Of a stretch of 64,000 nt of DNA, positions 44,993-54,745 are shown piece by piece. A model generated the notes under the pieces. That model saw only the letters and a list, made by a program, of their open reading frames with translations, made no database searches and was not told the DNA's origin. A program made the position numbers and the translations under genes. Location of the stretch: positions 372,001 to 436,000 of the forward strand of contig NZ_CP094289.1 of NCBI RefSeq assembly GCF_022759505.1, read 5' to 3'. Source of the DNA: Georgenia sp. TF02-10. GTDB taxonomy: Bacteria; Actinomycetota; Actinomycetes; Actinomycetales; Actinomycetaceae. How positions within the stretch are numbered: position 1 is the stretch's first letter; each line of letters begins with the position of its first letter.

Positions 44993-45312
44993 TCAGTAGG
45001 GCGGGTCCTCGGGTATGTGGCCGTTGGCGTCGGGGTACATCTCGCGGGGCGGTGGCGGGCTGCCGCCGGAGCCGCCGGAGCCATCGCCGCCGGAGCCGCC
45101 GGGGCCGCTTCCGGGTGGGGGGAGGCCGGGGGGTCGGTGGGCCGGGCGGGTGTAGCGGTGGCCGGTGGGGGCGATCTAGGTGGTGGCGCCGGTGGCGGGG
45201 TCGCGGATGACGTCCCAGAGCTTGGTGGTCTTCAGCCCGTGGTGGGTGCGGCAGCCGGGCCCGAGCTTCTCCGGGGAGGTCTGCACCAGGTCGGTGCGGG
45301 TGTGGTCGAACT
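44993..45312 (-). pseudogene. 3' exon of the DUF222/HNH gene, with an internal TAG
   Basis: Read from 45312 in the phase set by exon 1, it gives EFDHTRTDLVQTSPEKLGPG, then CRTHHGLKTTKLWDVIRDP, the second half of the HNH motif with its HH pair. A TAG at 45176-45178 stands where relatives usually have tryptophan (TTW-IAPTGHRY), cutting the protein there. In the same frame the sequence continues as IAPTGHRYTRPAHRPP and a Gly/Pro-rich tail to a TGA at 44993-44995, showing that the stop is recent. Confidence 0.8.
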
Positions 45313-45375
45313 GTTGAGTCGGCCTGGGGCGCGGTGCCCGGATTGCGCCGGGTCCGTTTCCCCAGGCCGCTCGCC

Positions 45376-45409
45376 GAACCGGACGTGCGGCTCTCACCGC
45401 ATCCGGCTC
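45376..45409 (-). ncRNA. Group II intron domain V
   Basis: Minus-strand reading begins GAGCCGGATGCGGTGAGAGC and ends ACGTCCGGTTC: a 34-nt stem-loop with a GAGA tetraloop-type cap and a two-base bulge, the catalytic core of group II introns (compare the consensus GAGCCGTATGCG...CGTACGGTTC). It lies 15 bases after the reverse transcriptase stop. Confidence 0.92.
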
Positions 45410-45424
45410 TCCACGGTGTCCTGC

Positions 45425-46927
45425 TCAGGCGGTCGGTCCAGCAAGGGCCCAGGGAGTGGGGATCGCACCCCGGTAGCGGTACCGGGTGACCGGTACCGCG
45501 GCGGGGTCGAACATCTCGATCCCGTCCGCGTGGATGGGTCGCCACCGCCCGGTGGGGGTGGTGAGCCATCGGCGGACGTCCGCCCACTTCCAGCGGTGGA
45601 GTTGCCGCTGCCAGCGCACGAGCCGTGACCACAGGTACTGGCTGAGGCGGTGGAAGGTGAGTTTGGCTGCGGCGTGCTGGAAGTAGTTGGTCCAGCCACG
45701 CAGGATCTGGTTGAGCCGGATCAGCGTGGCTCCGAGGCCTTGCTGTGATGTCCTGTTGGTAAGGGTACGGACCTTCGTCTTGACCGACCGCAGGGGTCGG
45801 TCTGCGATGAAGGTGTAGACGTACCACTTGTTGGTGCCTCGCTTCCGGCGCCGCTGGATGCGGAACCCGAGGAAGTCGAAGCCGTCGTGGATGTTCACCA
45901 CCTGGGTCTTGGCCTCGGAGAGCACCAGGCCCATGGGCGCGATCACCTCCGCGACGTGCTCGCGCAGGGCGAGGGCGTCCTCGCGGGTGCCGTTGACCAT
46001 GACCACGAAGTCGTCCGCGTAGCGGATGATCCGGTGGTTGGCCTGGCCCCGCTTGATCCGCCCCTGGCGTTTGCCACGGGTGTCCATCCGTCCGCCGGGC
46101 TGCCAGTCTGCGTGCAGGGCCTCGTCGAGGACCGACAGCGCGATGTTGGCGAGCAACGGCGAGAGGATGCCCCCTTGCGGGGTCCCCGTCGCGGTGTCCT
46201 CGTACTGGCCGAGTTCGGTGAGGAGCCCGGCCTTGAGGAACGCCCGGACGAGTGCGACGACGCGTTTGTCCTTGACCCGGCCACGGACCCGCCCGAGCAG
46301 GGCGGTGTGGTCGATCCGGTCAAAGCACGCCTCGATGTCCGCGTCCAGCACCCACCAGTACCGCTTGGTGCCGAACAGGTGGATCTCGGCGATCGCGTCC
46401 TGCGCCCGCCTACGGGGCCGGAACCCGTAGGAGACCGGCTGGAAGTCGGCCTCGAAGATGGGTTCCAGCACCAGCTTCAACGCGGCCTGGACGACCCGGT
46501 CCGCCACGGTGGGGATCCCCAGCCGGCGGACCTTGCCGCCGGTCTTGGGGATCCGCCGTTCGCGGACCGGCTCCGGGCGGAACGTGCCCGTCCGGACCTG
46601 CTGGCGCAGGTCCTCCAGGAACACCGGCACACCGATCCCGGTCTCGATCCGGGCGACCGTCAGGCCGTCCGAACCAGCCGTTCGCGCCCCGGTGTTGCCC
46701 GCGACCCGGTCCCACGCCACTTCCAGCGTGGCCGGGTCGTGCACGAGGTTGAACAGGTCATCGAACCGGCGGCCGGGGTCGGCCACCGCCCAAGAGTGCA
46801 GCCTGGTCTGAATCTGCGATACCCACCGGTGCGGATCGCTCCGCGACGGTGGTGCGCCGGTGTTCACCGGTGCGTCTTTCACTGTGACAACTCCTTGCTG
46901 CTCGATACCGCTGCCGCCCTTCGCCAT
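45425..46927 (-). CDS. ltrA: Group II intron reverse transcriptase/maturase
   Basis: 500 residues. RT blocks run from GIPTVADRVVQAALKLVLEP through SYGFRPRRRAQDAI, DADIEACFDRIDH, TPQGGILSPLLANI and the catalytic RYADDFVV. The maturase X domain follows (LRGWTNYFQHAAAKLTFHRL, then SQYLWSRL). No HNH endonuclease domain is present, as in several bacterial classes that invade DNA at replication forks. The protein helps the intron fold and splice and then copies it into new sites. Start: ATG at 46927, with a weak ribosome site. Confidence 0.95.
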   Translation of the reverse strand: MAKGGSGIEQQGVVTVKDAPVNTGAPPSRSDPHRWVSQIQTRLHSWAVADPGRRFDDLFNLVHDPATLEVAWDRVAGNTGARTAGSDGLTVARIETGIGVPVFLEDLRQQVRTGTFRPEPVRERRIPKTGGKVRRLGIPTVADRVVQAALKLVLEPIFEADFQPVSYGFRPRRRAQDAIAEIHLFGTKRYWWVLDADIEACFDRIDHTALLGRVRGRVKDKRVVALVRAFLKAGLLTELGQYEDTATGTPQGGILSPLLANIALSVLDEALHADWQPGGRMDTRGKRQGRIKRGQANHRIIRYADDFVVMVNGTREDALALREHVAEVIAPMGLVLSEAKTQVVNIHDGFDFLGFRIQRRRKRGTNKWYVYTFIADRPLRSVKTKVRTLTNRTSQQGLGATLIRLNQILRGWTNYFQHAAAKLTFHRLSQYLWSRLVRWQRQLHRWKWADVRRWLTTPTGRWRPIHADGIEMFDPAAVPVTRYRYRGAIPTPWALAGPTA

Positions 46928-47473
46928 GTGACCGGCTTTCCCGGACTCGGACTACTACGGCGGCTCCGTCCCGTCCCGGACCGATCGGCCGACGGTGGGC
47001 CCAGCCCGCTGTCCGCGCTGGCTGCGCGACCAGGGGGCGGGACCGGGACGGTTCCCGTGTTCACTTGTTGATCGCTCGACGGAGGAGGCACCCGACTATG
47101 ACCCTGCGACATCGCCACGGCTACGCCGCAGACCTTCACCATGGCCTTCCTTTTCGCTCGAAGACACGTCCGGGAAGTTCCCCACCCCGTGAGGTGTGGG
47201 TGCGCGTCGCATCCGGCCCAGATCCGCCAGGTTCGGGCCGGTTGACCATCGAGGGCCGTAAAGACGCCGGTTTCTTGCGTATACCTTTCCGTCACGCTCG
47301 CCCCACCCGCGCCGTCTGGCAGTACCGGCCCGTCAGGGCTTTGTCAGGGCCGCTTGCCACCCGATCCCGGCACCTCCCGGGTCAGGCTGCCCTCAGCTTC
47401 ACCGTCCTGCTGCGACAGGCCGGCGGCGCAGGTCTCTCACCTCCGCTCGATCAACAGGCGCCTCACGGCGCAC

Positions 47474-48926
47474 CGTCGATGTGGTCCAGGTCGCACAGCC
47501 AGGCCGGCTGCCGGCAGCCGTGGAAGGTGCATTCGGGGTTCTGGGCGATGACGGTGCGGCCGATGACCGCGCCGGGCTTGTAGGCCCGGGTGCCGACCGC
47601 GGTGACGTGCCCGCCGGGGTCGGTGTACACCGCCCGCCAGGTCGCGTCCTTCGCGATGGTCCGGGCGAGGTCGGCGGAGATCGGGCCGTACCCGGCCAGG
47701 TGCGCGGGGGCCTCGTCCAGGCCGTGCAGGGTGGTGGCGGCGACGGTGACCATCAGGTGCGGGTGGTACGGGCCCCGCTTGGGCAGCGGGAGCCCGCCTG
47801 GGGTGGTGCCCTGGTCCAGGAGGGTGGTGAAGACGTCGGCGAAGGCGTCGGCGCGGCGCTGGTCCAGGGTGCGGGGGTCTCCGGGGGTGCGGGCCGCGGC
47901 CGCGAGGGCGTCGACGGCGACCCGGGTGGCCTCGGCGGCGTCGGCGCGCAGGTACGCCGAGACCCACGCCATCTGGTCATCCGCCGGCGTGACCTCGACC
48001 CGCCGGTCGGCGTAGGCCCGCTTGCGGCGCTTGGCGCCGATGTCCGGGTCGGTGCCGAGGGCGGCCTGGCGGACCTGCTGGCGGAGCTGGGAGGCGGAGA
48101 GGTCTTTCGCCTGCTCGATCAATCCTGGGAGGAGGCGGCGTCGGTCGTCGTCGGGCAGGCAGGGCTCGGCGAAGAGCAGGACGTCGGCTTTCTTCGGGTC
48201 CACCGCCCCGGTCTGAAGGGCGTCGGCGACCACGGGGTGGGTGTCCAGGCCGGCGGCGAGGGCGACCTTGGCCTCGGCGGCGTACTGGGTGGTGGCCAGG
48301 CGGGCCTGGAGCTCATACGTCGCCGAGCTCAGCTTGCCCACCATCCCCAGCGTCCGGCGGTCGTGCAGGCGGCGGTTGACCAGCTCGGAGACCGCCCTGG
48401 CCTGGCGGTGGGTGGCCCAGGCGATGATCCGTTCCCACCCGGCGACCGCCTCGACCAGCACGCCGGGGTCGACGTCGGCCAGCGGCAGGTCGAGCAGATC
48501 CGCCGCCAGGGCGAGGCCCGGCGCCCGGGCCTCCAGCTCGGCGGCCGGGGTGCCGGGCGGGGCGAAGTAGGCCTCCCCGGGCGCCTCGTAGACCACCCGC
48601 TGGTTCGCGCCCGCGGGAGCGGGGTAGAGCTCGACGCCGTCGAGGACCTGGACCAGCTGACCCAGACCATCCCGCCGCCAGGACCCCCACCACGACGCCT
48701 CACCGCTGGCCGGGCCGGCCGGGCCGGTCTCGCGCGGGAGGCCTGCGCCCGCACGGTGGGCGTCCTCGGCGACGTCACCGGGGGCGGTGGTCACCGGTGC
48801 CACCGAAGCTAGCTGCAGGGACCGGGCCAGGGCCCGCTCCACCCCGCTGCCGCCACGCACCGGCCCGGCGGCGAGGCCGGCCGCGACCGCCCCTGCCCGG
48901 GCCCCGCGGGGAACGCCTGCGTCCAT
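47474..48926 (-). CDS. 5' exon of a DUF222/13E12-family HNH endonuclease gene
   Basis: 484 codons plus one base. It shows the DUF222 region (ERIIAWATHRQARAVSELVN; GLDTHPVVADALQTGAVDPK) and the first half of the HNH motif (CTFHGCRQPAWLCDLDHID). The final G joins the AG of exon 2. Unspliced, the frame ends five bases into the intron at a TGA. Members of this multicopy actinobacterial family are putative nucleases; the Mycobacterium 13E12 repeats are phage attachment sites. The ATG at 48926 is favoured because TACGTT lies six bases upstream (leaderless). Confidence 0.85.
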
Positions 48927-49252
48927 GCCCCGAACGTAGCCGCGGCCACTGACATCGCTGCCTCCGCTGCCCACACCCTCGAGAGGGCGCCTCGCACACC
49001 GGCGCGGCGGGAGGCATCGTGGGCCGGGCGGAGCACCTTCGTCGGTGCCCGGCGGGGAACGTCTGCGTCCATGCCCCGAACGTAGCCGCCGCCACCGACA
49101 TCGCCGCCGCGGCTACCCACAAGCTCGACGCGGCGACCGGTCTCGGGGTCGCGAGCGGCACCGCACGCCGGGCGTAAGGCCTCGGTCGCTGCACCGCGGG
49201 GAACGTCGTCGTCCATGTCCCGAACGTAGCCGCCACCACTGACATCCCTGCC
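48906..49252 (-). repeat. Three 57-bp repeats of a promoter plus start codon
   Basis: Blocks at 48906-48962, 49052-49108 and 49196-49252 each read, on the minus strand, GATGTC(A/G)GTGG...GCTACGTTCGGG(G/A)CATGGACG. All keep TACGTT six bases before an ATG (48926, 49072, 49216), spaced 146 and 144 bp. The sequence between the blocks is also related. The ORFs begin MDAGVPR, MDADVPR and MDDDVPR. They look like tandem duplications of the 5' end of the HNH gene. Confidence 0.8.
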
Positions 49253-54002: not shown

Positions 54003-54716
54003 ATGGCGCCAGACCCCCGGAGCGCCGAGACGACGTCGCCGGCCGGCCACGGCCCCCGAGAGCTGACGGCCACCCGGCGGCTGCTCACCTGCGGCGTCGT
54101 CGCCGGCCCGGTCCTCCTCGCCGTCCTGCTCGGGCAGGCCCTGTGGCGGCCCGGCTTCGAGCTCGGCGTGCACGCCCTCTCGCTGCTCAGCCGCGGCGAG
54201 CACGGCTGGACCCAGATCGCCGCGTTCGTGCTGACCGGGCTGCTCGTCGGCGCCGCCGGCGCCGGGGTGCGCCGGGCCGCGCCGGGCACCAGCGGCGCCC
54301 TCGCCGGCTGGCTGGTGACGGCCATGGGCGCCGGGCTTGTGCTCGCCGGCGCCTTCGTGGTGGACCCCGGGACCGGGTTCCCGCCCGGCGGCCCGCCGCC
54401 GGCCCTCGAGCTGTCGTGGCACGGCGCGCTGCACGACGTCGGCACCGCCCTGGCGCTGAACGCCGGGGTGGCGGCGGCGCTGGTGCTGGCCTGGTACGCC
54501 GCCCGCGCCGGCGCCCGGGCCGCGTCGGCGGGCTCCCTGCTCGCCGCCGTCGCCGTGGCGGCGCTCGCCTGGTGGGGCGGGCCCGGCGTCCCGCTGCGGG
54601 TGACCGTGGCGGTGACCGTGCTCGCCGCCTGGCTCACCGCCGCCTGCCTGGTGCTCCGCCGCCGCCTGTGCACAGAAGGAGCGGGCCGCGGCGGGCCTGT
54701 CGGTGGGTCGGCATAG
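54003..54716 (+). CDS. DUF998-like multi-pass membrane protein
   Basis: 237 residues with six helices (CGVVAGPVLLAVLLGQALW; AAFVLTGLLVGAAGAGV; AGWLVTAMGAGLVLAGAFVV; and three more). The region DPGTGFPPGG, then LHDVGTAL, is typical of DUF998 proteins, whose function is unknown. ATG at 54003 starts the likely N-terminal tail. It ends 29 bp before recC. Confidence 0.75.
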   Translation: MAPDPRSAETTSPAGHGPRELTATRRLLTCGVVAGPVLLAVLLGQALWRPGFELGVHALSLLSRGEHGWTQIAAFVLTGLLVGAAGAGVRRAAPGTSGALAGWLVTAMGAGLVLAGAFVVDPGTGFPPGGPPPALELSWHGALHDVGTALALNAGVAAALVLAWYAARAGARAASAGSLLAAVAVAALAWWGGPGVPLRVTVAVTVLAAWLTAACLVLRRRLCTEGAGRGGPVGGSA

Positions 54717-54745
54717 GCTGCTCGGGACCAGGAAGGGGTGAGCCG

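What the first reader, a model, noticed from the sequence alone, without database searches (positions are those of the whole stretch)
48906..49252. Three about 145-bp tandem copies of a leaderless promoter and start codon
Each block holds the same TACGTT box, six-base gap and ATG followed by MD-x-x-VPR. The copy spacing is 146 and 144 bp, and the outermost ATG reads in frame into the middle one. This could give several start sites for the HNH gene, or be the scar of serial duplication of its 5' end, perhaps tied to 13E12-type recombination.
Basis: seen in the sequence. Interest (0 to 1): 0.6.

Follow-up and report, generated by a model that had tools for sequence, protein, structure and literature searches.

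The report
Triplicated DNA-damage promoter before DUF222 gene
Three copies in a row of a DNA-damage-switched promoter, each fused directly to a start codon, stand before a nuclease-type gene in an actinobacterium; sister genes carry independently built arrays of the same promoter, which suggests that repeated copying of this switch is a recurring way of strengthening the damage response.

Summary
In detail: three same-strand copies (spacing 146 and 144 bp), each with TACGTT, six bases and ATG. Every copy is ATGTCRGTG-N8-TACGTT-N6-ATG, which matches the RecA-NDp/PafBC DNA-damage promoter (tTGTCRgtg-N8-TAnnnT, PMC5656591) set for leaderless translation. The genome has 28 such motifs (0 for the reversed control, about 0.25 by base composition); 24 have a start codon 6-7 nt downstream. 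Eighteen lie at DUF222 genes, the others include SbcD, UvrD and nuclease genes; pafB and pafC are present. A paralogous array keeps its two outer cores at 94% identity while spacers fell to 67% (P = 7.5e-8), with no codon bias: the outer promoters look selected, their short ORFs do not. Two further DUF222 genes here, and DUF222 genes in three other genomes, carry arrays with other periods; most relatives have one copy. In this window only the innermost ATG is in frame with the gene. Verdict: a tandem PafBC promoter array, new in arrangement, known in parts; expression untested. Side finding: IS110 elements sit in PafBC promoters in several species.

The parts
49223..49244 (-). outer PafBC/RecA-NDp motif TGTCAGTG-GTGGCGGC-TACGTT
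   Evidence: exact motif match, (C1:421223-421244); core 94% identical to the same-position copy at the paralog
49214..49216 (-). outer leaderless ATG, 6 nt after the -10 box; opens a 135-codon ORF to 48809, out of frame with DUF222
49079..49100 (-). middle PafBC/RecA-NDp motif TGTCGGTG-GCGGCGGC-TACGTT
   Evidence: C1:421079-421100; core 94% identical to the paralog copy
49070..49072 (-). middle leaderless ATG; in frame with the outer ATG, 87 codons to 48809, out of frame with DUF222
48933..48954 (-). inner PafBC/RecA-NDp motif TGTCAGTG-GCCGCGGC-TACGTT
   Evidence: C1:420933-420954
48924..48926 (-). inner leaderless ATG, proposed start of the DUF222 protein
   Evidence: the only one of the three ATGs in frame with the DUF222 ORF
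47474..48926 (-). exon 1 of the DUF222 (13E12-type) HNH gene
   Evidence: PF02720 E = 1.4e-29; reading frame runs into the intron at 47473
45313..47473 (-). group II intron inside the HNH motif codons (RT/maturase ORF 45425-46927)
   Evidence: Rfam Intron_gpII 45313-45411, RVT_1 and GIIM domains; boundaries read by eye, GTGCG...CAAC
45180..45312 (-). exon 2: rest of the HNH motif, ending at a TAG where paralogous DUF222 proteins continue
   Evidence: sequence; alignment of DUF222 proteins; joined reading H-I-D-E-F-D-H-T by eye

Best explanation
The three blocks are a tandem array of PafBC-dependent (RecA-NDp) DNA-damage promoters, each with a leaderless start codon, made by serial duplication of the 5' end of a DUF222-HNH gene and kept by selection on the promoter cores. 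Proposed working: DNA damage exposes single-stranded DNA, which activates PafBC; PafBC redirects sigma-A RNA polymerase to TGTCRGTG-N8-TANNNT; transcription starts at or next to the ATG 6-7 nt further on, and the ribosome starts on the leaderless 5' ATG. The innermost promoter makes the DUF222 protein. The two outer promoters add damage-induced transcription across the gene, or fire into short out-of-frame ORFs and so tune its output. Shown: motif, spacing, genome-wide enrichment at leaderless starts of DNA-repair and DUF222 genes, presence of pafBC, selective conservation of the cores. Inferred: actual PafBC control, start points, and the contribution of the outer promoters.
For: Consensus from the literature: tTGTCRgtg-8 nt-TannnT (PMC5656591), TGTCRG-N10-TA-N3-T (PMC8151990), recognised by PafBC (PMC6789036), with PafBC triggered by ssDNA (PMC11804915). 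Genome scan: 28 hits, 0 for the reversed pattern, about 0.25 expected from base composition. 24 of 28 have ATG/GTG exactly 6-7 nt after the -10 box; ATG alone 23 against 0.3 expected. Targets include SbcD, a PD-(D/E)XK nuclease, a DEDD/GIY-YIG exonuclease, UvrD and a C5-methylase. pafB and pafC are adjacent (WYL, WCX, HTH_PafC). Core against spacer between the two paralogous arrays: 6/100 against 62/190 changes, P = 7.5e-8. DUF222 relatives in Georgenia and Cellulomonas carry one such leaderless promoter each. Other tandem arrays at DUF222 genes: two in this genome (4 and 3 units), plus G138, G139 and G351 (DUF222 domain confirmed for G138 and G351).
Against: No expression or binding data. The first consensus letter is A, not T, in most copies of this genome. 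Most relatives have a single promoter, so an array is not required. About 18 nt after the ATG are conserved too (2 changes in 36), which a promoter alone does not explain. The comparison of cores rests on two loci of one genome.
Confidence: 0.82

Rival explanations
1. Only the innermost promoter works; the two outer copies are neutral relics of serial duplication.
For: Most DUF222 relatives have a single promoter; outer reading frames are out of frame with the gene; the array is rare.
Against: Outer and middle cores are 94% identical to the same-position cores at the paralogous locus while flanking spacers have fallen to 65-70%. Outside the cores, neighbouring units within the window have diverged to 0.17-0.70 identity, so general homogenisation of whole units does not explain it.
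Confidence: 0.25
2. Nested alternative start codons that give DUF222 proteins with zero, one or two N-terminal repeat extensions.
For: In the two other arrays of this genome all spacings are multiples of three (78, 87, 84 and 81, 84) and the outer starts read into the gene.
Against: In this window the middle-to-inner spacing is 146, so the outer frames end at 48809 out of frame; changes against the paralog are spread evenly over codon positions.
Confidence: 0.07
3. The repeat is a target or product of recombination or transposition (13E12 or IS110) rather than a promoter array.
For: An IS110-type element sits in the paralogous array exactly at GAT|GTCAG, and a second copy sits at the same point before another DUF222 gene.
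Against: The element targets the PafBC motif itself; homologues sit in the same kind of half site before RmuC, C5-methylase, ligase-like and helicase genes that have no array. The window array holds no element.
Confidence: 0.05

Closest known systems
RecA-NDp (P1) promoters activated by PafBC in mycobacteria
   Same: TGTCRGTG-N8-TANNNT at the required spacing, directed at the gene; regulon of DNA-repair genes; pafBC present in the genome
   Different: Three copies in tandem before one gene, each fused 6 nt from an ATG; no description of tandem PafBC promoters found in the open library
Leaderless genes of Actinobacteria (TANNNT about 10-12 bp before the start; PMC3160421, PMC3898074)
   Same: -10 box TACGTT whose last T is 6 nt before the ATG
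   Different: Three successive leaderless starts in one upstream region
13E12/REP13E12 (DUF222-HNH) genes of Mycobacterium tuberculosis, reported as damage-regulated (PMC4181829)
   Same: DUF222 plus HNH protein, multigene family, DNA-damage link
   Different: Control there is described through LexA; here the PafBC motif; HNH codons here are split by a group II intron

Membership tests
PafBC/RecA-NDp promoter | TGTCRGTG, 8 nt, TANNNT on one strand, oriented to the gene | tested here: met
   all three copies match exactly
PafBC/RecA-NDp promoter | genome encodes PafB and PafC | tested here: met
   PF19187 129.9 bits; adjacent WYL/WCX proteins
PafBC/RecA-NDp promoter | motif shared with DNA-repair genes of the same genome | tested here: met
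   SbcD, PD-(D/E)XK nuclease, DEDD exonuclease, UvrD downstream of the motif
PafBC/RecA-NDp promoter | PafBC-dependent induction by DNA damage | not testable with these tools
   needs RNA data and a pafBC mutant
Leaderless start | TANNNT placed so that transcription starts at the start codon | tested here: met
   6 nt from last T to ATG in all three copies; 24 of 28 genome-wide at 6-7 nt
Leaderless start | mapped transcript 5' end at the ATG | not testable with these tools
   no RNA data held
13E12/DUF222 family | DUF222 domain over the Pfam cut-off | tested here: met
   PF02720 103.9 bits
13E12/DUF222 family | C-terminal HNH motif | tested here: inconclusive
   motif present only if the group II intron is joined out (read by eye); splicing not tested

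The most novel reading that the evidence does not exclude
The 5' ends of DUF222-HNH genes are a recurrent site of promoter amplification: PafBC promoter plus leaderless start is copied in tandem, independently and with different periods, in several actinobacteria to raise or grade the damage response, and the same promoter element is the programmed landing site of a group of IS110 transposons whose candidate bridge RNA carries the motif (CACTGAC).
Probability: 0.35. Interest if true: 0.7.

Novelty: new variant of a known kind. Interest (0 to 1): 0.52.

Why it matters
It ties a large, functionally obscure gene family (DUF222/13E12) to the PafBC damage response outside mycobacteria, and shows natural promoter multiplication with apparent selection on each copy. 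It gives a simple test: does the number of PafBC promoters set the strength of induction, and what do DUF222-HNH proteins do during repair? The side observation, IS110 elements placed at PafBC promoters, would join a transposon's target choice to the host's damage regulon.

Tried and rejected
Protein-coding repeat in this window: rejected by frame and even codon-position changes. Sigma-70 consensus promoter or terminator scan: nothing. Related DUF222 loci in the genome collection: only four, all with single promoters or near matches. Tandem hits in G035 are in a coding TPR-like repeat, and those in family f28 (G253, G366, G386) show no DUF222 gene in the stretches read; neither was counted as support. 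The family of G351 shows arrays in 1 of 301 genomes, so arrays are rare. The literature search for 13E12 with mitomycin found no paper.

Full report
What is there. On the minus strand at 48854-49252 lie three tandem copies of one unit, spaced 146 and 144 bp. Each copy reads ATGTC(A/G)GTG-N8-TACGTT-CGGG(A/G)C-ATGGACG; the part from TACGTT on is matched by one pattern with no mismatch in all three copies. The upstream box TGTCRGTG, 8 nt before it, is equally constant and gives the element its identity.

Identity. The published PafBC (RecA-NDp, P1) consensus is tTGTCRgtg-8 nt-TannnT (PMC5656591) or TGTCRG-N10-TA-N3-T (PMC8151990). PafBC uses this motif (PMC6789036) and is activated by single-stranded DNA (PMC11804915). 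Searching the whole genome for TGTCRGTG-N8-TANNNT gives 28 hits against 0 for the reversed pattern and about 0.25 expected from base composition. In 24 of 28 the next start codon is exactly 6 or 7 nt after the -10 box; for ATG alone 23 were seen against 0.3 expected (hits in one array are not independent). This is the geometry of leaderless actinobacterial genes (PMC3160421, PMC3898074). Non-DUF222 targets include SbcD, a PD-(D/E)XK nuclease, a DEDD/GIY-YIG exonuclease, UvrD, a patatin and a C5-methylase. pafB and pafC are present side by side. I therefore call the units PafBC-type promoters; PafBC control itself is inferred.

DUF222 link. By position, 18 of the 28 motifs lie at DUF222 genes. 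DUF222 relatives from two Georgenia and one Cellulomonas genome each have one leaderless copy before the gene. In M. tuberculosis, 13E12-family HNH genes have been reported among damage-regulated genes, through LexA (PMC4181829).

Selection on the copies. A paralogous DUF222 locus (C1:1222704) has the same three-unit array, with an IS110-type element between the second and third units. With the element's flanks joined, the outer and middle cores (motif, gap, ATG and 18 nt) differ at 6 of 100 sites, the spacers at 62 of 190 (P = 7.5e-8). Changes in the outer reading frame are spread evenly over codon positions, 20, 24 and 22 of 90 each. So the cores are held while the spacers drift as non-coding DNA. 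Outside the cores, units within the window share only 0.17 to 0.70 identity, which argues against whole-unit homogenisation. The gene bodies and introns are 99% identical over 3090 bp, so the bodies were exchanged or copied more recently than the arrays diverged.

Reading frames. Outer and middle ATGs are 144 nt apart and in frame; the middle and inner ATGs are 146 nt apart, so ORFs from the outer ATGs end at 48809 out of frame with DUF222. In this window the outer starts cannot make longer forms of the HNH protein. In two other arrays of the genome (4 units, spacing 78/87/84, at C1:1395843; 3 units, 81/84, at C1:2408435) all spacings are multiples of three and the outer starts read into the gene; nested products are possible there.

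How common. With exact tandem patterns: short spacing, 1 of 213 genomes of the family, the own one; long spacing, 4 of 213, of which G035 is a TPR-like coding repeat and G138 and G139 have pairs before DUF222-type ORFs (domain confirmed for G138). Of 395 genomes of the class, 5 match; G351 has three units at 133/134 bp and, at another locus, two units (132 bp); DUF222 was confirmed by Pfam for the two-unit locus. In G351's family 1 of 301 genomes matches. Arrays are thus rare, sporadic and of several periods, which points to repeated independent origin; exact patterns will miss diverged arrays.

Mechanism proposed. Damage, ssDNA, PafBC, sigma-A polymerase at TGTCRGTG/TANNNT, leaderless translation. 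The innermost unit makes the DUF222 protein; the outer two add damage-induced transcription or tune it through short out-of-frame ORFs. The role of the outer units is inferred from conservation only.

IS110 side finding. The element has DEDD_Tnp_IS110 and Transposase_20 domains. Its two full copies in this genome lie at the same point of a PafBC-type motif, GAT|GTCAG, before two DUF222 genes. Homologues (about 55% identity) sit just upstream of GTCRGTG-type half sites before a DUF222-HNH gene (L124), RmuC (L125) and a C5-methylase (L127); further copies in G984 abut GTCCGTG and GTCGGTA before a ligase-like and a DEAD-box helicase gene. Several of these lack a good -10 box. The element's 5' noncoding stretch contains GGCACTGACTG, like the target GGCACTGAC, folds strongly (z -4.1), and in L130 both guide and target read GGTACTGAC. 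This fits an IS110 bridge RNA whose target guide is the PafBC element; it is a hypothesis. No paper joining IS110 and PafBC was found.

Verdict. New variant of a known kind: known promoter, known gene family, unusual tandem arrangement under apparent selection.

Noticed in passing
L041:3091-4537 (C1:1224084-1225544); second copy C1:3031086-3032542; L124, L125, L127, L152, L153: IS110-family elements inserted at GAT|GTCAG-type half sites of PafBC-like promoters (DUF222, RmuC, C5-methylase, ligase-like and helicase genes) in at least four genomes; the 5' noncoding region carries a matching candidate bridge-RNA guide CACTGAC.
   Followed up: partly
45313-47473: Group II intron with RT/maturase splits the HNH motif codons of the DUF222 gene (D-H-I-D|E-F-D-H after joining, by eye); the paralog at C1:1222704 carries the same intron in a 99% identical 3090-bp stretch.
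   Followed up: partly
about 45180: Exon 2 of the DUF222 gene ends at a TAG where paralogous DUF222 proteins read tryptophan and continue, so the C-terminus is shortened after the HNH motif.
   Followed up: no
L048:1501-3022 (C1:436351, 351 bases beyond the window end): The same TGTCAGTG-N8-TACGTT motif with a leaderless ATG drives a C5-cytosine methylase gene.
   Followed up: partly
54698-54719: A PafBC-motif match on the plus strand without a nearby start codon (C1:426698); possibly chance.
   Followed up: no
L056 (C1:1397308-1397578) and L060 (C1:2407575-2407761): Tandem PafBC promoter arrays of 4 and 3 units with all spacings multiples of three, reading in frame into DUF222 genes; nested N-termini possible.
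   Followed up: partly
L049:1529-2632: A patatin-like phospholipase gene has a leaderless PafBC-type promoter; could be a damage-linked defence effector.
   Followed up: no
L097, L098, L103, L106 (family f28 genomes): Tandem TTGTCGGTG-N8-TANNNT repeats followed by GC-rich inverted sequence, no DUF222 gene in the stretches read; nature unknown.
   Followed up: no
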